From: Gautieria morchelliformis
Lineage: Eukaryota; Basidiomycota; Agaricomycetes; Gomphales; Gomphaceae
NCBI GenBank assembly: GCA_015179125.1
Contig: WHVA01000242.1
Coordinates: 1 to 64,000, forward strand
Length of the DNA stretch: 64,000 bases
Direction of reading: 5' to 3'
This document shows positions 2,631-64,000 of this stretch, piece after piece. Numbering within the stretch: the stretch's first letter is position 1; each line of letters starts with the position of its first letter. A program made the position numbers and the translations under genes. Below the pieces are notes generated by a model. That model was not told the origin of the DNA. It did not search any database and saw only the letters and a program-made list of their open reading frames with translations.

Positions 2631-4369
2631 TGGGCTGCGAAGCATGAATGCCAGTTTGCAGTGGACAAGTTCGGACTAATGGGGTTGAGCAGACGCAGGG
2701 AGAAGGACCCCACGAAAATGAGCAAAACCAGACCGCTGGCCAGGCCACCGATAAGAATAGGGCAACACCGCATATATCCTACGACGACGCACAAACTTCT
2801 AGGAGTGATCATAGACCAAGAACTCAGATTCAAGGAACACACAAACTACGTGCTAAAGAAGGGCAAAGCGTACATCAGTCAATACAGAAGATTAGCAAGG
2901 CCGACCAAAGGAATCACAGCTAAGCACATGAGAACTTACTATCTTATCGTGGCGGTGCCAAAACTGCTATATGCCGCTGACATGTTTCTCATACCAGCAA
3001 GCGAACAAGGCAAAGGGACCAAGGGGAAAATTAACAAGCTAGCACGGATACAAAGACAAGCGGCGCTGGACATCACCGGAGCCCTCAGAACCACGGCCAT
3101 GGACACACTTGAAGCGCATGCTAATCTCATGCCGTTCCCATTGCTAGTAGCCAAGCTGATACATAGAGCCGCAGTAAGACTCGCTTGTTTACCTGACGAA
3201 CACCCGCTCGCTGCAAAAGTAAAAAGAACAGCCAGAAGATACGTACAGCGACACCGATCACCTCTCCACGAGATTCTGCACGTGTACAAGCTCATCCCGG
3301 ACAAGATGGAAAAGATCCAAACTGTGGTACTTGGACCCAAATGGGACCTGGCCTTCAGCACACGAATCCCACATGACAAAGAGCAAGCGATTGAACAGAT
3401 AGAATCAGAAGAGGCGGAGGTGATAGTCTTTTCTGATGGATCATGTCTGGAAGGCGGGATAGAGCTGCGGCGGTACTGTACAAGAATGGGAGGGAACACA
3501 GATCGGTGTGCCTGCACTTGGGGTCGGAAAGCGAGCACACGGTATTCGAGGCTGAGTTAGCGGGAGTGGCAATGGCCGCCAAGATGCTGCGCGCAGAGAG
3601 GAGTGACAGATACGTGATAGCCCCAGACAGCCAGGCGGCGATCCGGACGACAAGAAGAGAAAGCGCCATACCCGGGCAATACTTGGTCAACGCGGTACAC
3701 AGGCAGGTCCAGAAAGTCGTCGAACAGCAGGTGGGAGCAAAGGTGGTGATGAGGTGGGTACCAGGACACGAGGGGGTAACAGGCAACGAGAGGGCAGATG
3801 CGGAAGCGAAGAAGGCTGCGAAAGGAGCAACTAGCAGTGGGAGGGATATACCAACGGAGTGTCATGGACCCTTACCGATAAGCAGGGCAGCCGAGACGCA
3901 GAGGCACAATGCGAAGCTGAAACAGCAAGCACGGACAGCGTTTGCTAAGTCACCAAGAGCACAATTCGCGCTTGAGATTGACCCTTCTATGCCATCTGCA
4001 GCGTTCTCGAAAATGACGAGGGACATGCCGCGCAAGCATGCGAGCCTACTCACGCAGCTCAGGACGGGCCACATAGCCTTGAACAAACATATGCACAAGA
4101 TAGGCAAAGTAGACTCACCATTGTGCCCCACGTGCCGAAACGCGCCAGAGACCGTACACCACTATCTGTTTCGATGCCCAACATACAGCGGACCCAGGAG
4201 GAGACTGGAGAAGAGTCTCAGAAGAGGGGCTAAATCGGTCAAAACTCTACTAGGCGGACACAAAGCAATGAGCTACTTGTTCAGATACATACACGAGACG
4301 GGGAGGTTCGAGAAATCGCACGGAAATATGACGCTACCCGAAAGGGCGAAGGAGGGGAACAGGAGATGA
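2631..4369 (+). pseudogene. LINE (Tad/I-type) ORF2, C-terminal RT and RNase H
   Basis: The frame starts mid reverse transcriptase (WAAKHECQFAVDKFGL; HKLLGVIIDQELRFKEH near 2790) and continues through the RT thumb. It then enters an RNase H domain: VIVFSDGSCLEGG near 3420 carries the first catalytic Asp, followed by FEAELAGVAMA (Glu), APDSQAAI (Asp) and GVTGNERADAEAKKA (last Asp). A C-terminal Cys/His motif (CPTCRNAPETVHHYLFRC) lies near 4130. One base is lost near 3466 in the RNase H region, so the two halves lie in different frames. The 5' part was displaced by the gypsy insertion and lies beyond the left edge. RNase H-bearing LINEs with this tail are typical of fungi. Confidence 0.92.
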
Positions 4370-17048: not shown

Positions 17049-18333
17049 ATGAACAACAAAATGTCAAACAAGCTCGAATCTATGACTTCTTCATTTCCTT
17101 CAGCCGGTTCCCATGTGTTCAGGGGAGAACCTGACTCACTCACGATCGCCGCTAAGAATGCGCTATTTGCAAATTTGGAGCTTCCAGTGTCGGCCATCAG
17201 CCCACACGATAGGGACCCTTTGGTGCAAGGTGGTTATTCAGATATCTGGCGGACACACTTGATGCGGGACGGTGTGCGCACGCTGGTAGGTTGCCTAGAT
17301 CCTTCGAGCGTATGTCTAATTACAAATCTGGCGGGGTCCATCAGGTCGCACTGAAGGTCTTGTGTCGCAACGCCAGGACCCAGGACCAAGTGAAGGAGGT
17401 ATGTGCGATCAGGTTGTATTGGTGCTCGACTGTTTACTTTGGGAATCCTCTTATATGCAGAGCTTCCAGCAGGAGGTCGGGTGTTGGAGAGTTCTTGATC
17501 ACGCAAACATTGCGCCGCTAATTGGTGTCTGCTCTAACTGGCACGACGGTTCACCCGCAATTGTTTCTCCGTGGTATGATCGTGGCACGGCCAACCAATA
17601 CCTCCAGCGTAACCCTAATGCAAACCTTCTCGCTATAGTATGTCTTCCAATCTACCTCCCGCATAGTACTCACGCTTCCCAAGGCCAAAGACATGGCAAA
17701 TGGCCTCGCGTACGTGCACGGCAAAGGCCTTGTCCATGGCGACATCAAAAGCGTATGTCTCCACCGCCCTCGTCTAGCACCTCTTGTCCTTGTACATTAG
17801 CGCCCATATACCATTCTACACAGGCAAACGTCATGATCGACGAGCATGGACACGCACGCTTGATCGACTTTGGCCTGGCACATTTTATAGACACACACGT
17901 GGACGTGGATCTCCCAGAGGGCTCGATCAGGTGGTGTGCGCCAGAATTGTTTCAGCCTGGTGCCGTAAGCACGCCTTCTAGCGACGTATATGCATTCGCT
18001 AGTACTGTACTCGAGGTAGGTCCATTCGCAAACCCACTCCTCCGATCGGCGCAACGACATCTTGATGATTGTGATCACATTTATCTTGTCGTACTGCTAT
18101 AGCTCCTCAGTAGACGCGTACCCTACCACACGCTGATCGAACGGATCGTGATCTCAGGGGTCATGAAGGGGATACTGCCGTCATGCTTCTGCGGTGACTT
18201 TTTTTCTCTGCCCCGAGTGCAGGGCCTAGTTGGAGCAGAGGCGCTATGGGAGTTGTTGCACAGCTGCTGGGTGGATGCTGCACGTCGACTGAGTATGTCT
18301 GAGATGAGGTTGAGTTTGATGAGTCTCGAATAG
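17049..18333 (+). CDS. TKL-type protein kinase, copy 1
   Basis: Six exons join in one frame: 17049-17285, 17345-17398, 17461-17637, 17684-17752, 17824-18015 and 18103-18333, all with GT-AG introns of 46-87 bases, giving about 319 residues. Kinase motifs in order: a Gly-rich loop variant GGYSDIWR; VALKVL with the ATP-binding Lys; QEV helix-C Glu; VHGDIKSANVMID (catalytic loop, HGD in place of HRD); DFGLA; SIRWCAPEL (APE box); and a C-terminal CWVDAARR in which the usual following Pro is Leu. The exon pattern is the same in copies 2 and 3. I used the upstream ATG because an in-frame equivalent is present in all three; ATG at 17061 is an alternative. No membrane segment or extra domain is seen. 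Substrate unknown. Confidence 0.85.
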
Positions 18334-18875: not shown

Positions 18876-19518
18876 AAGATTGGATGTAGGTGTTAATATC
18901 AGCTCCAAGGCCGTTCGTGCTTACATCAAGAAGCAGCAAGTGGCCCGCGTGAAAATCATTCTCCATATTGAACCGTCCCAGCTTCCTCATGCTCGCTTCA
19001 GTAAACCAATGGAGATTTGGGAGAACCTTGAACAAGTCCATTGCACTCGCGGATTTGCGACCCGTCTTGCCCTTCGCCGTGAATTCCTGTATATGAAGAA
19101 ACAGGACGACCAGGTCATGAATTCATGGATTGCCGATGTCAAAAATACCGCATACCGTCTCGACGCTGCTGGAGTTACGGTTATCGATGAAGACATCATT
19201 CTTGCACTCACAGCTGGACTACCAGATTCGTATTCCATGCTCATCGTCACGCTTGACAACCTGCCCCCAAATGAACTCACACTTCCAAATGTCATCACCC
19301 ATCTTTTGAATGAGGAGGTGCGACAAAATGCCCACGAAGATGTCGTAGAACTCTCAAGACCTATCTATTCTGTACAAGATGTCAAGAACAAGAAGATTAA
19401 GACACAACTTTCCGAGATCACTTGCTACAGTTGTGGCAAGAAAGGTCATTACAAGTCCAATTGTCCCGAACCGAAGAAGGATGAAACGGGCGATAAAATC
19501 GCAGCTTCTTTATTCTGA
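18876..19518 (+). pseudogene. Ty1/copia gag fragment
   Basis: The frame reads through the gag (UBN2-like) region (MEIWENLEQVHCTRGFATRL; LRREFLYMKKQDDQVMNSWI; ILALTAGLPDSYSMLIVTL) to a CCHC zinc knuckle CYSCGKKGHYKSNC near 19425, then stops at 19516-19518. The usual N-terminal start of gag is missing. The protease, integrase and RT that should follow are absent: the 3' LTR lies only about 50 bases downstream. It is therefore 5'-truncated and internally deleted. Confidence 0.88.
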
Positions 19519-33496: not shown

Positions 33497-34237
33497 TGTT
33501 ATGACCATGCTGCTCAACCATCTCCGCAACCTCTGCAACCTCCACACCACCTCCACACCACTTCTGCACCACCTCCGACTCTATTCTGCAACATCGGCAA
33601 CATCCACAACCCTCAACCCTTGAAAGTTGACCCCTTGTTCTTCTACACCCCTTTCAACTCTATTCATCTGCCCTCTGCACTTGACCCTTAGCACAGCAAG
33701 ATACCAAGTCCGGTGCATCAGGACTTCTGTTTGTTCCACTGTCCATTAGACTTACATGCCCTTTGTTCTTTTGCCCATTGTTCTTGGCTCTACCCTGTAC
33801 CCCTTTTTAGTACCCTTGTTCCGCATTTGTCACTTACTCCATTTGTTATAGTTACTTCTGTTTGTACTGGAATTGTTTACCCTCTCCCCATTACCTGTTG
33901 TTCCAGCTCTTTGTATAAAACCTGCTCATGTATGCCCTCTGTTTCTGCATTCAGATAGTCGACTTTGATACGTGACTCCCTTTGCACTGTCTCCTGTTCT
34001 TAGCACAGCAAGCTTGCAATATCTCTGTCTCTCCACCTCTCAACCTTCTGTCTTTTGACTTCTGATTTCTGACCTCTGATCTTTGACTTAGCTTGATACT
34101 CGAACCTTTCTGTATCTCCACCTCTTCCAACCTCTGATCTCCAAAATACTTAGGATGATAGTTCATTGGCAGTGCAACACATAAGTTGAAGCCACAGTCC
34201 TTTTATATCCGACCTCTGGGATTCCCAATATGTAACA
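33497..34237 (-). repeat. Dispersed repeat R, LTR-like, inverted copy
   Basis: On the minus strand it starts TGTTACATATTGGGAATCC and ends GGTCATAACA. It matches 56414-57357 and 62548-63477 over most of its length, including the GGTGGTG/GGAGGTGG tandem stretch. The ends TGTTA...TAACA fit an LTR, but flanking 5-mers (TTATG, TTACA) do not match well. Confidence 0.6.
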
Positions 34238-39452: not shown

Positions 39453-42400
39453 CTTTCTGCAGTCGATCAAGGCGACGAGGAGCCACCTTACAACGTTTGT
39501 CAGATGCACTGTGACATGCCTGTGAACGTTTTATTATTCAATATTCAGGGTCGCTTCCCAAGGGCAGCCGCAATTTGCCAGTCCTGAGTGGTCAACGGAA
39601 CCAAACAATCTCCACTCCTCTCACAGCGAACGTCCATCTACAACTCCGCGAGCTTCTCCACCGCTCCCGTCTCTTCACCGTCCACTGTCTTTCAACCTCA
39701 ATCGTCCAGCTACACAACGGCTCCACTTTCCTCGACAGCGACTCCCGATGGCTTACTGTCCCTTTCGGCGGCGCTGTATCAGCAATATCAGATCGGTTGA
39801 CTACAGAACGGACGGCTGACTAGCACTCATCGATGAGCTTGGCATGAGTATGATGAATAAAGGTATGTGCCGCGATGAATTTGGATAGCAAGAATAAATG
39901 CCCATTATTTCCTAGGACTCCACCAAGTTCCTTGAACCCAGCCTATATCCCCGCCGGCACAGCTTAGAGAACTCGATGGACTCTTCTGAGAAATGTTATG
40001 TGCAGCGCTGTAACTGGGAGTCTGTCGGAAACGCACGATCACTCACTCGCATCCCTCCCTCGCAAGTGCCGACCATTGTCGTCGTTGTCTTGATCCTCGA
40101 GTCGTGGGTGTATTTGGGTAAAGGGTACACCAGAGTTTCTGTGCTCAACTTGAACTTGAACCCATCGGGAAATCGCCTTACTTTTGATTATCCTGCTGTT
40201 CCTGCGCCAACATTCGACAAATCTAGGTAGCAATACAAACACACGTGAGGCACTGGAACCATACCTGCCTCTCGATCCGTGCTCCTGCGGATACCTTTAT
40301 TCAAGGCTCCCCCGCTTAACCCCAAAGCCATCCGGACAGATTGGGACCTAGCCTGTGACCTGCACCTCGGCTCTAACCGGGACACACACCTGGTGTCCTA
40401 TACACACTGTGACCTTTCGTCAACAGCCAGTCTTGGCCGGTAGCGCTCCAACCCTCCCATGCTCGTCAGAGCTAGTTGAATTCGTGCACCGTCACTATCG
40501 GCGAGGTGTGCTGCTTCCACAGACATAGACGCACTTGACATGCCACCACCCCGGTACCTGCGCATGACAGCACTCATACCCCGTCTCCTTCTATCAGCAG
40601 CTAGTCTTGGCCGGTCGTGTTCCCACCCTCGCATGTTCGTCTGTCATAACTGGTCAAACTTGTGCACCCAGTCACCTGTGCGGGAACAAACCGGGTGGCT
40701 CGCACAGGGCGTGCGAAGCGTGTGGGCGAAGCACGGGCATTCTCAACTGATTGACCAGATCCGTGGCCACCGTCGGGCGATAGTGCTCGTCGTCTCGCGT
40801 GTCTCTTCATTCTTGGACACCTGAAGGTGCCTCTTTATCCTCTGACATATCTCCTTTCATGGTTTTATGTCCAGTATGAGGCATGTCCATGCACATACCC
40901 CTCACGCATGCGCTGTCGTCCTCACCGCCCTATGGGTCCACGACCCACACAACATCACACCCCACCGGCACCCATAGGCCCCCCCACGAAGCAGGCAGCG
41001 CTAAGAGCACATGAACAAGCCCACTTTCAAAATGTCAAGCAAGCTCGAATCTATGACTCCTTCATTTACTTCAGGCAGTTTCCATGCGCTCAGCGGAGAA
41101 CCCGACTCGCTCACGATCGCCGCTAGGAATCCGCCATTCGCAAACTTGGAGCTTCCAGTGTCGGACATCAGCCCACACGGTAGGGACCCTTTGGTGCAAG
41201 GTGGTTATTCAGATATCTGGCGGACACGCTTGATACGGGACGGTGTGCGCACGCTGGTAGGTTGCCTAGATCCTTCGAGCGTATGTCTAATTACAAATCT
41301 GGCGGGGTCCATCAGGTCGCACTGAAGGTCTTGCGTCGCAACACCAGGACCCAGGACCAAGTGAAGGAGGTACGTGGGATCAGGTTGTATTGGTGCTCGA
41401 CTATTTACCTTGGGAATCCTCTCATATGCAGAGCTTCCAGCAGGAGGTCGGGTGTTGGAGAGTTCTTGATCATGCAAACATTGCGCCGCTAATTGGTGTC
41501 TGCTCTAACTGGCACGGCGGTTCACCTGCAATTGTTTCTCCGTGGTATGGTAACGGCACGGCCAGCCAGTACCTCCAGCGTAACCCTAATGCAAACCTTC
41601 TCGCTATAGTATGTCTTCCAATCTACCCCCCGCATAGTACTCACGCTTCCCAAGGCCAAAGACATGGCAAATGGCCTCGCGTACGTGCACGGCAAAGGCC
41701 TCGTCCACGGCGACATCAAAAGCGTACGTCTCCACCGCCCTCGTCTAGCACCTCTCGTCCTTGTACATTAGCGCCCATATCCGCTCATCCCCATTCTACA
41801 CAGGCAAACGTCATGATCGACGAGCACGGACACGCACGCTTGATCGACTTTGGCCTGGCACATTTTATAGACACACACGTGGACGTGGATTTCCCAGAGG
41901 GCTCAATCAGGTGGTGTGCGCTAGAATTGCTACAGGGTGCCGTAAGCACGCCTGCTAGTGACGTATATGCATTCGCTAGTACTGTATTGGAGGTAGGTCC
42001 ATTCGCAAACCCTCTCCTGCTATCGGCGTAATGACATCTTGATGATTGTGCTCACGTTTATCTTGTTATGCTGCTATAGCTCCTCAGTGGACGCGTACCC
42101 TACCACACACTGATCGAACGGATCGTGATCTCAGAGGTCATGAAGGGGATACTGCCGTCACGCTTCTGCGGTGACTTTTTTTCTCTGCCCCGAGTGCAGG
42201 GCCTAGTTGGAGCAGAGGCGTTATGGGAGTTGTTGCAGAACTGCTGGGTGGATGCTACCCGTCGACCCAATATGTTTCAGTTGAGGCTGAGTTTGATGAG
42301 CCTCGAATAGCCTAGGAACTCTCCAAGCTTGCGCATGCACGCAGGCGATAGCCAGGCTGACACGTGTAAGTAGCCGCCCGTCAAAATGTATAGATTCCCA

Positions 42401-53503: not shown

Positions 53504-53998
53504 CTCCTATACCGGGACTCACTTGAGTTAAGCGCTGGCGCCGCGCGAGCACACCCTGCAGGACAGTTAAGCGCTTCGCCGCGCGAGCGCCCTGTCTCTT
53601 GATCGCGCACTGGCGCCGTCATCAACTCAAACTCAAAGTATAGATGTAGCCGTATCTATGGGTTCACCCCGCTGTTGGCGCTACAAATAGCCAACCCGTG
53701 AGAATGTGACTTTCCTGGAAATCGGCGGTAACACGCAGTACGCTTCAGTAATACATGGTTCACCGGGCCTCGTGCCGTCCGGCATCAACGGCCGCTGACT
53801 TTCGGCAGTCAACCTTGCAACTATCATTTGAAGCACTAGCGCGCAAGCCTTGAAGCTCCGACTTCATCTCCAGAGGAGAGGCTTGTACCAAGATGCCGGG
53901 GGGCCGTCTCCTCACGGTGCTGTGTCGGCCACAACACCTCTCGCGTCAAGTTTTCTTTAGATTATCGAAACAGCGATTACACTATTCTTTCTTTCTAT
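53504..53998. other. Unassigned junction sequence
   Basis: No gene is seen. A short GCGC-rich repeat (AAGCGCT...GCCGCGCGAGC) occurs twice near 53540 and 53570. The segment leads into the Helitron-like array. Confidence 0.4.
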
Positions 53999-54069
53999 TC
54001 TATAGGTGAAAGCGGCTCGGTGGGTTGTGGGCGTCGAGCTTATGTCAGGTTTTAGGTCAGCCTTAGTCA

Positions 54070-54280
54070 GCTGGCCAATCGGATGCGAGCGGCGCAGCCG
54101 CGAACCAAGAACGCTGCGCAGCATGGTCATGTGACCGTTTGCGTTCCAAATTAGGTCAGCAGCGAGCGGCGCAGCCGCGAGCATAGAACGTTGCGCAGCG
54201 GTCACGTGACCCGTTCGCGACCAGAGCGCGCATAAGCGAGCGTGGTCCGTGCACGACACGCGCGCGCGGTATAAAGGCCG
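54070..54280 (+). promoter_or_regulatory. Promoter-like head of unit I
   Basis: CCAAT (54075-54079), a GCGGC-GCA-GCCGC palindrome repeated twice, a palindromic E-box GTCACGTGAC (54201-54210) and TATAAAG (54270-54276) lie in the order expected of a Pol II core promoter. The E-box and TATA box recur in units III, IV and V. Confidence 0.65.
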
Positions 54281-54317
54281 AATGGTAAGGAGGGAACGCC
54301 AGGAACCTGCCCAACCG

Positions 54318-54440
54318 CCGATTCCTCTGTCTGCTGTCTGCTATGTGCTCTGTCTGCTCTGTCCTCTGTGCTGTCTGCTATGTGCTCTGTCCGCTGTCTG
54401 CTCTGTGCTCTGCTGTCTGCTCTGGGTGCTGTCTCCTCCT
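54318..54440 (+). repeat. CTGTCTGCT microsatellite
   Basis: A degenerate CTGTCTGCT/CTCTGTGCT repeat begins just downstream of the TATA box; the same tract is at 59866-59990 in unit IV. Confidence 0.75.
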
Positions 54441-54599
54441 TTAGCTGGCTGCCTGTCTATTGCTTTGCTGGCTTTCTATTGGTAGGTAATATGTTTTGTT
54501 TAATCCATTGCCATGTATTTTATTTTATTTGTGTTTGTAATTTTATTAGTTCTTTTTTTTTTCATCATAGTATTGTCACATGTGTATTATATTTTGGTG

Positions 54600-55230
54600 A
54601 TTTCTTTCGAAAATAGATTTAAATACCTTCCAAAGACTGCTGAAAAAAATGTATTTTAATATCAATATTTTTCCGGTTTTTTTCGAAAATAGACATCAAT
54701 AAGTTCCCTCTAAAATTAATGAGATTCTGCTTTTAAATGTGGTTTGTTTTATTGTTTTATTTACTGTAAAGCCACTTACCAGCCACTCCTCTCTGGCTAT
54801 ACTGGTGGCCGGCTTACTATGGCTTTGGCTGGGCTCTGGGTTTCTCTGTCAGTCTCAGGGCTTCTCTGGCTTTGGCTGGGCATTAATAACAGCCTCTGCT
54901 TCAATGTACTGTACTTTTTTGACATTTTTTCGCAGATAGATGTCAATAAATTATCCTGACTTTGTGAAAATTGTCAGCTTAAATGTACAGTGCATTTTTT
55001 TGACATTTTTCAAAAATAGATAATCTTGACTCTGCTAAAATTAATAACAACTTCAGCTTAAATGTACTGAACATTTATTTTGACATTTTTTGAAAAATAG
55101 ATAATCCTGACTTTGCTAAAATTAATGACAGCAGCTGCTTAAATATGGCTTCCTTTACTATTTTATTTATATCTGTATATGTCACAAAATAGATATTGAT
55201 ACATGTCCCTGAGTTTGCGAAAAGTTAATG
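54600..55230 (+). repeat. A/T-rich 80-90 bp tandem repeats, unit I
   Basis: Variant copies share TTTTGACATTTTTTCG, a GCAAATAGATATCAATAA-like core and TGACTTTGCTAAAATTAAT. Similar arrays are at 57905-58465 and 60160-60760. Confidence 0.7.
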
Positions 55231-55258
55231 ATAAGTAACAACCCCTGCTCGCTTCACT

Positions 55259-55915
55259 TTGAAGCCCTTGGGGATATGCTACACATGCCATTGGGACATG
55301 CTATGCATGCTATACTTGAGGGGCATGCTACACACACTAACATGCATGCTATGCATGGGGACACACGCTATGCTTGGGGACACCCATGTTATGCGTGGAG
55401 ACACACATGTTATGCATGGGGACAAGCATGCTATGCATGGGGATGTGCACACTATATGTGGGGACACACTATGCTTGGGGGACATGGTACAAACAAGGGA
55501 CACACTACAGGGGAATACACTACAAACACGGGACATTCTACACATGCTATACTTGGGGGACATGCTACAAACAAAGGACATGCTATGCACACTATACTTG
55601 GGGGACATGTTATGCATTGGGGACACACTTTGCACACTATACTTGAGGGGGATGCTACACACACTACATGGAGGGACATGCTATGTTTGGGGACATGCTA
55701 CAAACCAGGGACATGCTATGCATGTGGGACACGCCATGCACACTGTACTTGGGGATATGCAACATGTGGAGACACACTATGCATGGAGGACATGCTACAC
55801 ACACTATACTTGGGGACATGTTATATGTGGGCCAGGGACACAATAAGCATGCTATATTCGAGGCTATGCATGGAGGACATGCTATGCACGCTATACTTGG
55901 GCACATGCAGATATG
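55259..55915 (+). repeat. 17-bp minisatellite, unit I
   Basis: Degenerate copies of GGGGACATGCTATGCAT run through the stretch. Most CpG positions of the related array in unit III are TpG or CpA here. Confidence 0.8.
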
Positions 55916-56024
55916 TGTAGAGACATTACCTATCTTGATGTGTTACTTATAGCTACTTTCAATTGCAATGAGATGTGTTTTACTTATCCCAAGTTTGATT
56001 TACCCAATGCGTTTGACCTACACC

Positions 56025-56052
56025 CCCGTGTGAAGCATGGGTATCCACCTAG
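56025..56052 (+). other. 3'-terminal hairpin and CTAG, unit I
   Basis: Stem CCCGTGT / GCATGGG with loop GAA pairs fully if two G-T wobbles are allowed, followed by TATCCACCTAG. Confidence 0.75.
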
Positions 56053-57520
56053 AGGTAAGGGTTCAACAATCGAGTTAAGTTGGATATCAGAAATCGAGTT
56101 GGAAGGCAGAGGTCAGAGAGACAGAGGCCTTGCAAGTACTTGCTGTGGTAAGAACAGGAAACAGTGCAAAGAGAGTCACATATCAAAGTCAATTATCTGA
56201 TTGCAGAACAGAGGTACACATGACTGGGTTTTATACAAAGAGCTGAGACAACATGTCAGAAGGTAGAGGTAAGCAATTCCAGTGCAAGCAAAAGTAACTA
56301 GGATAAATGGAGTAAGTAACTAATACAGAACAAGAGGAACTACAAGGGGGTGCCGGGTAGAACTAAGAACAATCAATAGGCAAAAGAACAAGGGGAATGT
56401 GGGTCTAATTGATTGTTACGTATTGGAATTCCCGGAGGTCGGAACTGGACGGGACAACAGCTTCAAATTATGTGTTGCACCCCTGATGAACTACCATCCT
56501 AAGTATTTCGGGATTGACTTGCAGATATCGGAGAAGGCAGAAGTCGGGAACAGAGTACTGAGAGTCGAGGTTCGAGGGTCGGAGAACAAAGGTCAGAAGA
56601 GGCGGAAGAGGCGGAGGACACAGGGTCGGGAGCGGAAGGAGACAAGACTAGCAAACTCGCTGTGCTAAGAACAGGAGACAGTGCGAAGGGAATCACATAT
56701 CGAAGTTGATTATCTGATTGTAGGAACGGAGACATACATGAGGGGGTTTAATACAAAGAGCTGAAGCAACAGGTAATGGTATGGTACTAAGCAAATTCTG
56801 GAGAGTGCAGGAATCGGATAGACATACGGGGCAAGTAACTAATACGGAACAATGGGATGACAAGGGGGGTGCAGGGTAGGGTAAGTACAATGGCAAAGAA
56901 CAAGGCAAGTAAGTACAATAGGCCTCGGAAGAAACAGAATTACGGAAATGGTATCTTGCTGTGTTCAGGGTCGAGTAAGGGGGCCGGTATCTGGAGGTGG
57001 CCAGGGGTACTGAAATCACAAGGGTCGAGGTAGAGGGTTGCGGATGGTGCGGATGTTGTGGAATAGAGTTGGAGGTGGTGTGGAGGCGGTGCAGAGGTGG
57101 TGCGGAGGATATGCGGATATGGCGGAGATGGTTGAGGGGAACAGTCGTAACATTGATAGTGGAACAAATGGATCTCCTGATGCTCTGGACTTGCTATGCT
57201 AAGGGTCAAGTAGGGAACGCCGGTGAATAGAGTCAAAAGGGGAAGTATGTGAATAGTAAAGAACAAGGGGATGAAAAGGTCAAAGTGTGGACATTGCAGA
57301 ATAGAGCCAGAGGAGGCATGGAGGTACCAGAGTTGGTCAAGCAGCATGGTCATAACATTACCTACCTTGATGTGTTACTTAGAGCTACTGTCAATCAATA
57401 AGATGCATTTTACTTATCTGAAAGAAAATTTCTTATCCGAATGTGTTTGACTTATCCCAAGTTTGATTTACCCAAGGCGTTTGACTTGCACCCCCGCGCG
57501 AAGCGCGGGTATCCACCTAG
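56053..57520 (+). repeat. Spacer S1: two tandem copies of repeat R plus a Helitron-like 3' end
   Basis: It holds a partial copy of dispersed repeat R (about 56138-56400), a full LTR-like copy (56414-57357) and then the Helitron-like 3' segment (ATTACCTACCTTGATGTG... hairpin 57493-57509, CTAG 57517-57520). It has no head. The whole spacer recurs as S2 at 62188-63680. Confidence 0.7.
57493..57520 (+). other. 3'-terminal hairpin and CTAG at end of S1
   Basis: Perfect stem CCCGCGC / GCGCGGG with loop GAA, then TATCCACCTAG, directly abutting TCTAAGAG of unit III. Confidence 0.82.
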
Positions 57521-57589
57521 TCTAAGAGTGAAACGCGCTCAGTGGGTTGTGGGCGTCGTGCTTATGTCAGGTTTTAGGTCAGCATTGGT

Positions 57590-57750
57590 CAGCTGGCCAA
57601 TCGGACGCGAGCGGCGCAGCCGCGAGCCCTAGGGGCCGGGCCAGGCCAGACCATTGACGCTGCGCAGCAGCGTCCCAGGTCACGTGACCGGTTCGCGTGC
57701 GCTACCAGGGTGGTCCGTGCACGACCCTTCGCTTGGTATAAAGAGAGCGA
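57590..57750 (+). promoter_or_regulatory. Promoter-like head of unit III
   Basis: CCAATCGG near 57597, E-box palindrome GGTCACGTGACC (57678-57689) and TATAAAG (57737-57743). A 44-codon hydrophobic frame starts at 57750 but is not kept in unit V. Confidence 0.65.
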
Positions 57751-58471
57751 TGTTGCAGCCGCACTCCCCACTGGTGTCTTTCTGTGTTCTGGCTGTACTG
57801 GCGGGCTTACTACTGCTTTGGCTTTGCTCTGTGGGTCTCTGTGTGTCTCTGGGCTTCTCTGGGCTTCTCTGCCTTTGGCTGTGAATTGACACCAGCTTCT
57901 GCTTCAATGGCCTGTATATTTTTTCAATATTTTTTCGCAAATAGCTATCAATAAACCTAACTTGCTAACCTTAACAATAGCCAACTTATATATCCTGTAC
58001 ATTTTTCGATATTTTTTCGCAAATAGACATCAATAAATCTAACTGGCTAACCTAACCTCAGCCACCTTAACTATCCTGTAAATTTTTTTGACATTTTTTC
58101 GCAAATGGATATCAATAACCAACAATAGCCAACTCACTATCCTGTACATTTTTTGATATTTTTTCGCAAATAGACATCAATAACTTCTTTGCTCAGTTAA
58201 TAACAACTTCTGTTTTAATGTAGTGTGTTTTTTTTTATCTTTTGTTGAAAAATAAGTATAGATATCAATGAATTATCCTGACTTTGCTAAAATTAATACC
58301 AGCTTCAGGTTACATGTGCTGTACATTTTTTGACATTTTTTTAAAAGGTAGATATCAATAAATTATCCAGGCTTTGCTAAAATTAATAACAACGGCTGGT
58401 TAAATGTGGTTTCTTTTGCTATTTTATTTATGTCTATATATGTCACAAAATAGATACTGATACATGTCCCT

Positions 58472-59085
58472 TATATGTGTGAGGACACGCTACGTGTGGG
58501 ACATGTTATGTGTGGGGACACGCTACGGTGGGGACACGTTACGTGTGGGGACATGCTACCTGTGGGGACACGCTACCTGTGGGGACATGTTACGTGTGGG
58601 GACATGCTACCTGTGAGGACACGCTACCTGTGGGGACATGCTACCTGTGGGGACACGTTACCTGTGGGGACAAGCTACCTGTGAGGACACGTTACGTGTG
58701 GGGACATGCTACCTGTGAGGACACGTTACGTGTGGGGACACGCTACCTGTGAGGACACGTTACGTGTGGGACATGTTATGTGTGGGGACACGTTACGTGT
58801 GAGGACACGCTACCAGGGTGGACACGCTACCGGTGGGGACACGCTACCGGTGGGGACACGCTACCGGTGGGGACACGCTACCGGTGGGGACACGCTACCG
58901 GTGGGGACACGCTACTGTGGGCTACCGGTGGGGACACATTACGTGTGGGACATGCTACCTGTGAGGACACGTTACATGTGGGGACAAGTTATGTGTGGGG
59001 ACATGCTACCTGTGAGGACACGTTACGTGTGGGGACACGCTACCTGTGAGGACACGTTACGTGTGAGGACATGCTATCCAACTGC
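58472..59085 (+). repeat. 17-bp minisatellite, unit III
   Basis: Copies of GGGGACACGCTACCTGT with G/A, C/T and CTACC/TTACG variants. A homogenised block of six nearly identical CTACCGGT-type copies lies at 58808-58920. CpG is well preserved. Confidence 0.85.
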
Positions 59086-59132
59086 ACTTTGGGTCTTCTC
59101 CCATTTCTGATTTTGGTATTGTTTCTGGTTCT

Positions 59133-59408
59133 ATGAGAGTGTCACCGGAGGATCAGCTGGCATATCAATATAACCACATTGTCAAATTCAGGATCCCCAA
59201 GGTCACTATTGGATCTATTTCACAATGCACAACCTTTGAAACTGTGGATTATGACAATAGGCGCAATCTTATAATCTCTGATGATTCAGTCAAGACTATT
59301 ACCACTTTCATGTCTAGAGTCGCTGGGAGGCCCATCCCAGAGGTCGAGAGAGAGTTCTGCATGTTCGGCTATTCCATGGGTGCATACATGATTCATGATA
59401 CTATATGA
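59133..59408 (+). CDS. 91-codon hypothetical ORF carried by unit III
   Basis: The ORF starts MRVSPEDQLAYQYNHIVKFR, includes IGSISQCTTFETVDYDNRRN and ends GYSMGAYMIHDTI. Codon use looks like ordinary coding sequence and is unlike the flanking repeats, so it may be a captured exon. The frame stays open upstream to about 59090. No family is recognised. Confidence 0.4.
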   Translation: MRVSPEDQLAYQYNHIVKFRIPKVTIGSISQCTTFETVDYDNRRNLIISDDSVKTITTFMSRVAGRPIPEVEREFCMFGYSMGAYMIHDTI

Positions 59409-59444
59409 TCAGGGATATATTGTGCATGATCCTATTTACCCCAA

Positions 59445-59543
59445 TGCACTTGACCTTACTGATTCACTTGACCTTACTGATGCATTTGACCTTACCAAGG
59501 CGCTTGACCTGCACCCCCGCGCGAAGCGCGGGTACCCACCTAG
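59445..59543 (+). other. Subterminal 18-bp repeats, hairpin and CTAG, unit III
   Basis: Three copies of CACTTGACCTTACTGATG precede a perfect hairpin (CCCGCGC-GAA-GCGCGGG, 59516-59532) and TACCCACCTAG (CTAG 59540-59543). Confidence 0.8.
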
Positions 59544-59639
59544 TTCCTATAGGTGAAAGCGGCTCGGTGGGTTGTGGGCGTCGTGCTTATGTCAGCTTTT
59601 AGGTCATCAGTTTGTCAGCGGAGCGCGCGAGCGGCGCAG

Positions 59640-59820
59640 CCGCGAGCCAAGAACGCTGCGCAGCATGGTCACGTGACCGTTTGCGTTCCAAATTAGGTCA
59701 GCAGCGAGCGGCGCAGCCGCGAGAGAACGCTGCGCAGTGGTCACGTGACCCGTTCGCGACCAGAGCGCGCATACGCGAGTGTGGTCCGTGCACGACACGC
59801 GTGCACGGTATAAAGGCCGA
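59640..59820 (+). promoter_or_regulatory. Promoter-like head of unit IV
   Basis: GCGGCGCAGCCGC palindromes, E-box GGTCACGTGACC (59739-59750) and TATAAAGG (59809-59816) are kept with the same spacing as in unit I, although the CCAAT segment is replaced. Confidence 0.65.
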
Positions 59821-60159
59821 ACGGTAAGGACATAACGCCAGGAACCTGCCCAACCGGCGATTCCTCTGTCTGCTGTCTGCTATGTGCTCTGTCTGCTCTG
59901 TGCTCTGTGCTGTCTGCTCTGTGCTCTGTCCGCTGTCTGCTCTGTGCTCTGGGTGCTGTCTGCTGTCTGCTCTGTCTGCTGTCTCCTCCTTTAGCTGGCT
60001 GGCTGTCTATGGCTTTGGTTGGCTGACTATCTATTGGTAAGTAATATCTCTTTTTTAATGCATTCCAATGTATTTTATTTGATTTGTGTTTGTAATTTTA
60101 TTGGTTCCTTTTTTTTTATCATATTGTATTCACATTTGCTTTATATTTTTGTTATTTTT

Positions 60160-60760
60160 TTCGAAAATAGATTTAAATAAAATCCCAAGACTGCTGAAAA
60201 AAATGTATTTTGATATATATATTTTTCAGGTTTTTTTCGAAAATAGGCATCAATAAGTTTCTTCTAAAATTAATGGCAATATGTTCTGCTTTTAAATGTG
60301 GTTTGTTTTGTTGTTTTATTTACTGTAAAGCTGCCAGGCACTCCTTCTCTGGCTATACTGGTGGCTGGCTTACTATGGCTTTGGCTGGGCTCTGGGTTTC
60401 TCTGTCAGTCTCTGCGCTTCTCTGGCTTTGGCTGGGCATTAATAACAACTTCTGCTTCAATGTACTGTACTTTGTTGACATTTTTTCGCAGATAGATATT
60501 ATCCTGACTTTATGAAAATTGACAACAGTTGGAGCTTAAATGTACAGTGCATTTTTTTGACATTTTTCAAAAAATACATAATCTTGACTTTGCTAAAATT
60601 AATAACAACTTCAGCTTAAACGTACTGGACATTTGTTTTGAGATAATCCTGACTTTGTTAAAACTAATGACAGCAGCTGCTTAAATATGGCTTCCTTTAC
60701 TATTTTATTTATGTCTGTATATGCCACAAAATAGATATTGATACATGTCCCTGAGTTTGC
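60160..60760 (+). repeat. A/T-rich tandem repeats, unit IV
   Basis: Same repeat family as in unit I, with partial deletion near 60500-60640. A hydrophobic 65-codon frame (60298-60495) parallels 54739-54939 in unit I. Confidence 0.65.
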
Positions 60761-60814
60761 GAAAAGTAAATGATAAGTAACAACCTCTGCTTGCTTCACT
60801 TTGAGGCCCTTGGG

Positions 60815-62050
60815 ATATGCTACACATGCCATTGGGACATGCTACACACACTATGCATGGGGACACGCACGCTATGCATGGAGACACATATGTTATGCAT
60901 GGAGACATGTATGTTAGGCGTGAAGACATGCATGTTAGGTGTGGAGACATGCACGTTAGGCGTGGAGACATGTGTGTTGTGCATGGGGACAAGCATGCTA
61001 TGCTTGGGGACATGCATGTTATGCATAGAGACACACATGTTATGCATGGGGACAAGCATGCTATGCATGGGCACACACACACTATGTATGGGGATGTGCA
61101 CACTATATGGTGGGATACACTATGCTTGGGGACATACTATGCTTGGGGACAGACACACTATGATTGGGGGACACGGTACAAACAAGAGACACACTACGCA
61201 CACTATGCATGGGGAAAAACAAGGGACATTCTATACGTGCTATCCTTGGGGACATGTTATGCATGGGGGACACACTGTGCACACTATACTTGAGGGAGAG
61301 GCTACACACACTATGTGTAGGGAGATGCTACACATGTGGACATGCTATGCATGGGGGACACACATGCTATAATTTAGGGACATGCTACACACAAAATACT
61401 TGAGGGATATGTTATGCATGTGGGACATGCCACACACACTGTACTTGGTGACATGCTGCATGTGGGGACACACTATGCTTGGGGATGGGACACACAGGCT
61501 ATGCATGGGCACACGCACACTATGCATGGGGATGTGCACACTATATGTGGGGACACACTATGCTTGGGGGACACGGTACAAACAAGGGACACACTACAGG
61601 GGAAAACACTACAAATAAGGGACATTCTACACATGCTATACTTGGGGGACACGCTACAAACAAAGGACATGCTATGCACACTATACTTGGGGGACATGTT
61701 ATGCATTGGGGACACACTTTGCACACTATATTTGAGGGAGATGCTACACACTACATGTAGGGACATGCTACACATGTGGACACGCTATGCATGGGGGACA
61801 CACATGCTATAATTTATGGACACACTATGTTTGGGGACATGCTACAAACCAGGGACATGCTATGCATGTGGGACACACCATGCACACTGTACTTGGTGAC
61901 ATGCTACATGTGGAGACACACTATGCATGGAGGACATGCTACGCACACTATACTTGGGGACATGTTATGTGTGCATGTTACAAACCAGGGACACAATAAG
62001 CATGCTATATTCAAGGCTATGCACACTATACTTGGGCACATGCAGACATG
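60815..62050 (+). repeat. 17-bp minisatellite, unit IV
   Basis: Degenerate GGGGACATGCTATGCAT-type copies. Part of the array (about 61470-61760) matches the unit I array almost in order, with another block added before it. Confidence 0.8.
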
Positions 62051-62187
62051 CATAGAGACATTACCTATCTTGATGTGTTACTTATAGCTACTTTCAATTG
62101 CAATGAGATGTGTTTTACTTATCCCAAGTTTGATTTACCCAATGCGTTTGACCTACACCCCCGTGTGAAGCATGGGTATCCACCTAG

Positions 62188-63680
62188 AGGTATGGGGTCA
62201 AGAATTGAGTTAAATTGGATATCAGAAATCGAGTTGGAAGGCAGAGGTCAGAGAGACAGAGGCCTTGCAAGTACTTGCTGTGGTAAGAATAGGAAACAGT
62301 GCAAAGGGAGTCACATATCAAAGTCATTATCTGATTGCAGAATAGAGGCACACATGACTGGGTTTTATACAAAGAGCTGAGACAACATGTCAGAAGGTAG
62401 AGGTAAGCAATTCCAGTGCAAGCAAAAGTAACTAGGATAAATGGAGTAAGTAACTAATACGGAACAAGAGGAACTACAAGGGGGTGCCGGGTGGAACTAA
62501 GAACAATCAATAGGCAAAAGAACAAGGGGAATGTGTGTCTAATTGATTGTTACGTATTGGAATTCCCAGAGGTCGGAACTGGAAAGGACAACGGCTTCAA
62601 CTTATGTGTTGTGCCCCTGATGAACTACCATCCTAAGTATTTCGGGATTGACTTGCGGATATCGGAGAAGGCAGAAGTCGGGAACAGAGTACTGAGAGTC
62701 GAGGTTCAAGGGTCGGAGAACAAAGGTTGGAAGAGGCGGAGGACAGAGGGTCGAGAGCGGAAGGAGACAAGACTAGCAAAACTCGCTGTGCTAAGAACAG
62801 GAGACAGTGCGAAGGGAATCACGTATCGAAGTTGATTATCTGATTGCAGGAACGGAGACATACATGAGGGGGTTTTATACAAAGAGCTGAAGCAACAGGT
62901 AATGGTATGGTACTAAGCAAATTCTGCAGAGTGCAGGAATCGGATAGACATACGGGGCAAGTAACTAATGCGGAACAATGGGATGACAAGGGGGTGCAGG
63001 GTAGGGTAAGTACAATGGCAAAGAACAAGGCAAGTAAGTACAATAGGCCTCGGAAGAAACAGAATTACGGAAATGGTATCTTGCTGTGTTCAGGGTCGAG
63101 TACGGGGGCCGGTATCTGGAGGTGGCCAGGGGTACTGAAATCACAAGGGTCGAGGTAGAGGGTTGCAGATGGTGCGGATGTTGTGGAATAGAGTTCCGCT
63201 CAACCATCTCCACCATATCCGCATATCCTCCGCACCACCTCTGCACCGCCTCCGCACCACCTCCGACAGTCGTAACATTGATAGTGGAACAAATGGATCC
63301 CCTGATGCTCCGGACTTGCTATGCTAAGGGTCAAGTAGGGAAGGCCGGTGAATAGAGTCAAAAGGGAAGTATGTGAATAGTAAAGAACAAGGGGATCAAA
63401 AGGTCAAAGTGTGGACATTGTGGAATAGAGCCAGAGGAGGCATGGAGGTACCAGAGTTGGTCAAGCAGCATGGTCATAACATTACCTACCTTGATGTGTT
63501 ACTTAGAGCTACTTTCAATCAATAAAATGTGTTTTACTTATCTGAATGAAATTTTCTTATCCAAATGTGTTTGACTTATCCCAAGTTTGATTTACCCAAG
63601 GTGTTTGACCTTGCTGATGCGTTTGACCTTACCGAGGCGTTTGACTTGCACCCCCGCGCGAAGCACAGGTATCCACCTAG
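62188..63680 (+). repeat. Spacer S2, copy of S1
   Basis: It repeats S1 in order: a partial R copy, an LTR-like R copy (62548-63477) and the 3' segment with hairpin (63653-63669) and CTAG (63677-63680). Within R, the stretch 63196-63270 is inverted relative to S1 (pyrimidine-rich CCGCACCACCTC in place of purine-rich sequence). The hairpin right arm is GCACAGG, which leaves two mismatches. Confidence 0.7.
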
Positions 63681-64000
63681 TCTAAGAGTTAAACGCGGGG
63701 GTGGGTGGTTGTGGGCCTGCTGACCAATGCTTGGTCATTAGTTTGTCAGCGGCGCAGCCGCGAGCCCCCGGTCTGTTTAGGTCAGCGCCGAGTGGTGCAG
63801 CCGCGAGCTACAAACGCTGCGCAGCAGCGTTCCAGGTCACGTGACCGGTTCGCGACCATACGCGAGTGGTCCGTGCACGACCCTTCGCTTGGTATAAAGA
63901 GAGCGATGCTGCAGAACCGCACTCCCCACTGGTGTCCTCCTGTGTTCTGGCTGTGGTGGGCTTACTACTGCTTTGGCTGGGGTCTTGGTGTCTTTCTGTG
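63681..64000 (+). mobile_element. Helitron-like unit V (type B head), cut by window end
   Basis: TCTAAGAGTTAAACGCGG directly follows CTAG. The E-box (63835-63846) and TATAAAG (63893-63899) match unit III, and the sequence after the TATA box also follows unit III apart from a 2-base insertion. Confidence 0.7.

What the first reader, a model, noticed from the sequence alone, without database searches (positions are those of the whole stretch)
53999..64000. Head-to-tail array of Helitron-like units with alternating head types
Five 3' ends share a GC stem with a GAA loop followed by CCACCTAG, and four of them or their neighbours are followed by a TC-starting head. At 57520/57521 and 63680/63681 the CTAG touches the TC directly. 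Order is A head - S1 - B head - A head - S2 - B head, a higher-order repeat of about 5.5 kb. Ends of this kind (5' TC, 3' hairpin plus CTRR) are Helitron hallmarks, and tandem Helitrons are expected from rolling-circle replication. Units here carry no transposase but a strong-looking promoter, which is unusual.
Basis: partly seen in the sequence, partly recalled or inferred. Interest (0 to 1): 0.85.

Follow-up and report, generated by a model that had tools for sequence, protein, structure and literature searches.

The report
Different Helitrons stacked tail to head
The window ends in a run of five different rolling-circle transposons (Helitrons) joined exactly end to end, and elsewhere in this unnamed, possibly fungal genome many tails of one Helitron family also carry another Helitron directly behind them, as if they prefer to land on each other.

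Summary
The array spans contig C274 53977-77126, beyond the window end: four non-autonomous Helitrons plus a fifth with an interrupted Rep/helicase gene. 37 of 45 genomic matches cross the array's joined host flanks, so the 23-kb array sits between A and T without target duplication. A-type heads start TT, not TC.
In the 122-Mb assembly 459 of 778 exact family-1 tails (CCACCTAG) are followed at once by a head; of the first 30 intact tails in contig order, 24 are. A second family's tails (TTGGCTAG) are followed in 15 of 183, never by B heads. Same-type units of the array are 79-87% alike, while unit 1 is 98% like a copy elsewhere, so this is not simple rolling-circle concatemerisation. Best reading: Helitrons repeatedly inserted at, or were joined to, the cleavable 3' end of a resident Helitron, and composites then spread. 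Which side grows is unresolved. One unlike pair was reported in maize; my searches found no report of stacking as the main arrangement. New variant of a known kind.

The parts
53977..57520 (+). Unit 1 (A-type body, C-like TTACACTATT tip), non-autonomous Helitron; left flank base A at 53976
   Evidence: Empty-site alignment with 4 fetched paralogues (53998 is the alternative start); body 98% identical to C346 copy
56023..56052 (+). Internal 3' end inside unit 1 (CCCCCGTGTGAAGCATGGGTATCCACCTAG followed by A)
56053..57520 (+). S1 segment: DNA downstream of the internal end, up to the terminal 3' end
57491..57520 (+). Family-1 3' end: 7-bp stem, GAA loop, TATCCACCTAG
57521..59543 (+). Unit 2 (B head TCTAAGAG), non-autonomous, with 17-bp minisatellite 58478-59076
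59514..59543 (+). Family-1 3' end of unit 2
59544..63680 (+). Unit 3 (A head TTCCTATAGG), non-autonomous; A part 79-82% identical to unit 1
62158..62187 (+). Internal 3' end inside unit 3
62188..63680 (+). S2 segment, about 96% identical to S1 outside a 75-bp inversion
63651..63680 (+). Family-1 3' end of unit 3; stem decayed (z -0.2)
63681..64000 (+). Unit 4 (B head), continues to contig position 65955; then unit 5 (A-type head + RepHel, family-2 end TTGGCTAG) 65956-77126 outside the window
54270..54275 (+). TATAAA of unit 1 head (also at 57737, 59809, 63893; none in the first 450 bases of unit 5)
   Evidence: GGTCCGTGCACGAC ahead of it in units 1-4

Best explanation
This is a five-member train of distinct Helitrons from two related families. 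Shown: each unit has its own head and its own CTAG tail; joints are exact; the whole train occupies one A|T site. Inferred: trains grow because a Rep protein that carries one Helitron strand treats the 3' end of a resident Helitron (cut by Rep at CTAG|T) as a target or joining partner, so the newcomer's head is joined precisely to the resident's CTAG and the resident's T flank comes to follow the newcomer's tail. Inferred from head types: family 2 uses tails of both families, while B elements use only family-1 tails. Once made, sub-trains probably also move together when Rep runs past an inner tail; A-S1-B is present at two loci with different left flanks.
For: 459 of 778 exact GGGTATCCACCTAG tails followed within 18-40 b by GTTGTGGG, reversed control 0. 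24 of the first 30 intact tails in contig order touch a head; all 30 are followed by T. Lone heads (G excluded by the pattern) are preceded by A: B 93 of 100 listed (106 found), A-type 96 of 100 listed (111 found), D 61 of 63. Empty sites: 37 of 45 matches cross the joined flanks; 4 read in full. Units differ: U1/U3 79-82%, U2/U4 79-87%, but U1 is 98% like C346. On C171 two heads with the same tip lie 898 b apart; the unit between them matches the unit before it at 82-83% over its longer stretches and the 1015 held bases of the unit after it over 41 b only. 35 joints fall into 25 (90%) or 30 (95%) upstream/downstream combinations. Family dependence: 15 of 183 family-2 tails touch a head versus 459 of 778; B heads 0 of 15 after family-2 tails versus 47 of 100 listed after family-1 tails, Fisher p 0.0003. 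Helraiser transposase cuts precisely at the 3' end and makes tail-head joints (PMC4778049, PMC5876387, passages).
Against: No pair of haplotypes with and without one unit was found, so growth at the tail is not shown; C42 and C43 turned out colinear. Joints are partly inherited: A-S1-B occurs at C274 and C346, and upstream and downstream sides are weakly associated (all 35: p 0.026-0.041; 21 from the contig-order set: p 0.09-0.20). Head tips and bodies are reshuffled (C tip on B body in L008, B tip on A body in L012), so recombination could create new combinations. Some contigs are redundant, so counts are not all independent. Many insertions are at ordinary A|T sites.
Confidence: 0.5

Rival explanations
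1. Composite spread plus recombination: a few rare end-to-end joints arose by chance, then multi-unit composites transposed as wholes by read-through of inner tails, and ectopic recombination in the conserved junction region shuffled neighbours. No tail targeting is needed.
For: A-S1-B composite at two loci with different left flank and right neighbour; internal end + S recurrent; tip/body mosaics; weak upstream/downstream association; read-through is established for Helraiser (PMC4778049, passages).
Against: 25-30 combinations in 35 joints; family-2 tails rarely carry neighbours (15 of 183); two families joined exactly at the base.
Confidence: 0.27
2. [quoted passage not shown]
For: Gives the same joint; needs only the canonical A|T target; proposed as one option for maize (PMC2267711, passages).
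Against: One A|T among very many needs special attraction; dependence on the family of the upstream tail is more simply a property of that tail, though head recognition by one Rep could mimic it. In maize some lines hold only one of the two Helitrons, which without an extra precise excision implies insertion at the G|T tail site (PMC2267711, passages).
Confidence: 0.15
3. Rolling-circle concatemer: one element copied several times around a circle and inserted as a tandem array.
For: Tandem Helitron arrays in plants and bats are read this way (PMC5876387, passage); exact CTAG|TC joint.
Against: Of 50 neighbouring head pairs from partial lists 11 are same-type among A-D, 12 with one rare-type pair; same-type units here are 79-87% alike; the rare-type pair on C171 is not near-identical.
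Confidence: 0.04
4. Assembly artefact joining unrelated Helitron ends.
For: 1113 contigs, some redundant.
Against: Hundreds of joints at the same base, one seen in both C42 and C43; clean empty site for the whole array.
Confidence: 0.02

Closest known systems
Two adjacent maize Helitrons in the r1 region (PMC2267711; passages)
   Same: Two different Helitrons, exact CTAG|TC joint, read as consecutive insertions; order unresolved
   Different: A single case; here 459 such joints, several head types, two families and a whole-array empty site
Tandem Helitron arrays in bats and plants, incl. plant centromeres (mentioned in PMC5876387 and PMC5148889; passages; original papers not seen)
   Same: Head-to-tail joints
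   Different: Those are explained by rolling-circle or circular intermediates; here neighbours mostly differ
Helraiser/Helibat (PMC4778049, PMC5876387; passages)
   Same: CTAG end, 3' hairpin, A|T target, read-through of the 3' end, Rep + helicase
   Different: The passages seen do not mention targeting of the ends of resident copies; TC start only
Pleurotus HELPO1/HELPO2 (PMC4289320; passages)
   Same: Basidiomycete Helitrons with T[C/G] start, CT[A/T]G end, hairpin, AT target
   Different: The word 'tandem' occurs 0 times in the main text held
Fusarium FoHeli and multiple-terminus maize Helitrons (PMC5148889, PMC3288121; passages)
   Same: Extra termini from nested insertion; one three-copy tandem in Metarhizium
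   Different: Single cases in the passages seen; Fusarium elements are Helitron2-like with other termini

Membership tests
Helitron (canonical) | 3' hairpin followed by CTRR | tested here: met
   CTAG at the terminal tails of all five units; hairpin at 57520 and 59543 (z -3.3, -2.9), 65955 (z -2.0) and the family-2 end (z -2.3), but lost at 63680 (z -0.2); 1150 genome copies of the 23-base end with up to 2 mismatches, control 0
Helitron (canonical) | Insertion between A and T without target duplication | tested here: met
   Empty sites of this array; A before most lone heads, T after tails
Helitron (canonical) | 5' TC | tested here: inconclusive
   B and D heads start TC, A and C heads TT; one-base ambiguity with the target T remains
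Helitron (canonical) | Autonomous partner with Rep and PIF1-type helicase sharing the ends | tested here: met
   Helitron_like_N: 150 matches scored of 865 candidates; 1627-aa ORF with Helitron_like_N + PIF1; B head, Rep and family-1 tail in order on C171 at 68670, 71261, 77936
Helitron (canonical) | Transposition activity | not testable with these tools
   Copies on different contigs up to 99.97% identical over 3552 bases (C1017 versus C174) suggest recent spread only
Tandem array from rolling-circle concatemer | Adjacent units near-identical | tested here: not met
   79-87% between same-type units of the array; C171 pair not near-identical. Other same-type pairs (e.g. B-B) were not compared

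The most novel reading that the evidence does not exclude
Helitrons of this lineage have become near site-specific for each other's 3' ends: the Rep protein uses the hairpin-CTAG tail of resident copies as a main landing site, with family-dependent recognition, building mixed trains and sparing host genes. That would be a self-targeting, safe-harbour Helitron.
Probability: 0.4. Interest if true: 0.82.

Novelty: new variant of a known kind. Interest (0 to 1): 0.62.

Why it matters
In the papers seen, Helitron target choice is described as A|T. A genome in which many tails of one family carry another Helitron, with two families of different tail behaviour, makes the question of how Rep finds its target, and how mixed tandem arrays arise, testable by sequence comparison and a simple two-plasmid assay. 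It also shows that a 23-kb composite of five Helitrons can occupy one clean insertion site.

Tried and rejected
Subtelomeric clustering: many tails lie near contig ends, others mid-contig; four TTAGGG units in a row matched on one contig only (C60), so I dropped it without a statistical test. Rolling-circle concatemer: rejected for this array on divergence. S as a separate Helitron: disfavoured; of 10 S starts looked at, 7 directly follow the internal end (two of them, L073 and L003, are one locus), 1 (L030) follows other DNA and 2 are cut off; 5 further S copies are joined at another breakpoint to minisatellite DNA. Growth polarity from C42/C43: no information, colinear. Naming the organism: of 120 best Rep relatives listed (3338 found) the top one is 53% identical; named ones include mushroom-forming fungi (Coprinopsis, Phanerochaete, Antrodiella, Amanita, Psilocybe) and also Rhododendron; species not identified. 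Fuzzy 'best match' scans can miss ends and did miss the internal ones; two searches were repeated with a plain mismatch scan, which again gave 35 joints.
Full report
What is there. The window is positions 1-64000 of contig C274 (160,203 bp) of a 122-Mb assembly in 1113 contigs. It begins at 53977 and continues past the window to 77126. Units: U1 53977-57520, U2 57521-59543, U3 59544-63680, U4 63681-65955, U5 65956-77126. The joints after 57520, 59543, 63680 and 65955 are exact CTAG|head. U5 contains the Rep part of a Helitron gene (Helitron_like_N at 69140-69691; E 7.9e-61), is interrupted at about 69748-74445 by another element, then resumes and ends at 77126 in a different tail, CTATTGGCTAG.

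Corrections to the finding. Two of the five 3' ends (56052, 62187) are internal: the next base is A instead of T and the segment AGGTAAGG (AGGTATGG at 62188) follows. Their hairpins are weak (z -0.6), but the terminal end at 63680 is weak too (z -0.2). In held DNA 58 tails match GGGTATCCACCTAG with up to 2 mismatches: 37 touch a head by the motif used; 11 are this internal type; 3 are other ends followed by C or G (L024, L035, L036); 6 are followed by T and non-head DNA (L011, L015, L016, L017, L027, L032; L015 and L016 are one locus twice); one (L031) is followed by a head with one changed letter. This held set is not unselected, because eight loci were fetched by their B head. A-type heads begin TTCC and C-type TTACAC; B and D begin TC.

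Empty site. Joining 250 bases on either side of the array and searching the genome gave 45 matches (40 of 156 candidates scored); 37 cross the join, at 81-86% identity. The other eight are the two flanks themselves, one match to the right half and five short pieces. Four crossing copies were read: all have ...AACAGAGA|TGTATTC..., while the array's left side reads ...AACAGCGA then 21 further bases TTACACTATTC... before the A-type head. The simplest reading is a clean insertion of the whole array between A and T in a dispersed repeat of about 380 bases, with the array starting at 53977; those 21 bases begin like a C tip (TTACACTAT). The alternative is a start at 53998, also A|T, with the 21 bases as a separate change in this copy of the repeat. 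Neither shows a target duplication.

How common. Exact GGGTATCCACCTAG: 778 places (reversed control 2). The same followed within 18-40 bases by GTTGTGGG: 459 places (control 0); about 0.3 expected by chance (my arithmetic, 778 x 23 / 65536). The 778 include internal ends, so 59% is a low estimate for terminal tails. Of the first 30 intact tails in contig order, 24 touch a head (judged by eye), 6 do not, and all 30 are followed by T. Lone heads (not preceded by G) are preceded by A in 93 of 100 listed B (106 found; the other 7 T), 96 of 100 listed A-type (111 found; the other 4 T) and 61 of 63 D heads (counted by eye). Among the 100 listed joints the heads are B 47, C 17, D 17, A 10, other 9. 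Scaling to 459 gives roughly two thirds of B and under a third of A-type heads in joints (inference; exact motifs only).

Not a concatemer. The A parts of U1 and U3 are 79-82% identical, U2 and U4 79-87%, S1 and S2 about 96%; U1 is 98% identical to a copy on C346. That C346 locus shares A-S1-B with the window over 4.4 kb (95.6%) but has another left flank and a C head instead of an A head on the right. On C171 two heads with the same tip lie 898 bases apart; the unit between them matches the unit before it at 82-83% over its longer stretches and the 1015 held bases of the unit after it over the first 41 bases only. Of 50 neighbouring head pairs within 12 kb, 11 are same-type among A-D, 12 counting the C171 pair. 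The lists behind this are partial and miss altered heads, so some pairs may not be true neighbours, and the same-type B-B pairs were not compared in sequence.

Two families. L072 shows a 1627-aa ORF with Helitron_like_N and PIF1 followed by a TTGGCTAG end. L071 holds a second Rep/helicase region, 65.6% identical at DNA level, followed by a CCACCTAG end that touches a B head. Of the 17 D heads among the 100 listed joints, 9 have an exact family-2 tail on the same strand within 9 kb downstream (by eye), so D heads largely mark family 2; A-type tips occur on both families, so head type is an imperfect label. Family-2 tails (exact GGGTCTATTGGCTAG): 183 places; 15 touch a head, control 0, against 459 of 778 for family 1 (Fisher p 1e-39; conservative, as the 778 include internal ends). 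None of the 15 is a B head, against 47 of 100 listed after family-1 tails (p 0.0003); D-like heads follow both. This makes the upstream tail the likely determinant of the joint. Redundant contigs and inherited joints mean that the counts are not all independent and the p-values are too small.

Independent events or inheritance. 35 joints with 250 or more bases on both sides fall into 9 upstream and 17 downstream clusters and 25 combinations at 90% identity, or 30 combinations at 95%. Association between the sides is weak: p 0.026-0.041 for all 35, 0.09-0.20 for the 21 from the contig-order set (cluster and distance tests). So many joints are distinct, but some are inherited with moving composites, and head tips and bodies are reshuffled (C tip on a B-like body in L008, B tip on an A-like body in L012).

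Mechanism. Shown: units, joints, A|T target, empty site, two Rep families, tail-dependent stacking. Established elsewhere: Helraiser transposase cuts precisely at the 3' end and forms tail-head joints, the hairpin is a terminator, and read-through occurs (PMC4778049, passages; PMC5876387, passages). Inferred: Rep joins an incoming head to a resident CTAG end, on the chromosome or by joining two intermediates. Insertion at the head-side A|T gives the same joint and cannot be excluded. In maize, one pair of unlike Helitrons has this joint and its authors leave the order open, including insertion at a G|T site (PMC2267711, passages).

Literature. Searches (listings), with passages of PMC5148889, PMC4289320, PMC3411680 and PMC3288121, gave tandem arrays and single adjacent or nested cases, but no genome in which mixed end-to-end stacking is the main arrangement. 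The library lacks most subscription papers, so this is not proof of absence.

Verdict. Genuine Helitrons, whose stacking is not explained by concatemers; a strong, genome-wide and family-dependent joining of mostly unlike Helitrons. New variant of a known kind, with tail targeting as the most likely but unproven cause.

Noticed in passing
C274 69748-74445 (L069/L070, outside window): An element inserted in the Rep gene of unit 5; 52 bases of the gene are present on both sides of it, and two minus-strand ORFs (337 and 872 aa) have no Pfam match. By eye it recalls DIRS-like elements (recalled, not tested).
   Followed up: partly
window 63193-63267 versus 57068-57142: A 75-bp stretch of S2 is inverted relative to S1 (94.7% identical); the hairpin loop is also inverted at C346 (TTC for GAA).
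   Followed up: no
window 33497-34237, minus strand: A diverged (70%) relative of the S segment, 20 kb upstream of the array.
   Followed up: no
heads at 53977, 57521, 59544, 63681, 65956: All five heads share AGCGGCGCAGCCGCGAGC and the palindrome GGTCACGTGACC, although the two families have different tails; possible Rep or regulator sites.
   Followed up: partly
window 58478-59076, 55345-55475, 60844-61094: Minisatellites of 17 and 21 bp lie inside the B and A units.
   Followed up: no
host repeat around 53841-53976 and 77127-77349: The array sits in a dispersed repeat of about 380 bases with at least 37 other copies that cross the site; its nature is unknown.
   Followed up: partly
contigs C42 and C43: 97% identical colinear stretches (about 6 kb compared): the assembly holds some loci twice.
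   Followed up: yes
window 3443-4369, 17362-18102, 18880-19518, 41390-42031: RNase H/zf-RVT fragment, two partial protein-kinase ORFs and a Copia gag ORF.
   Followed up: no
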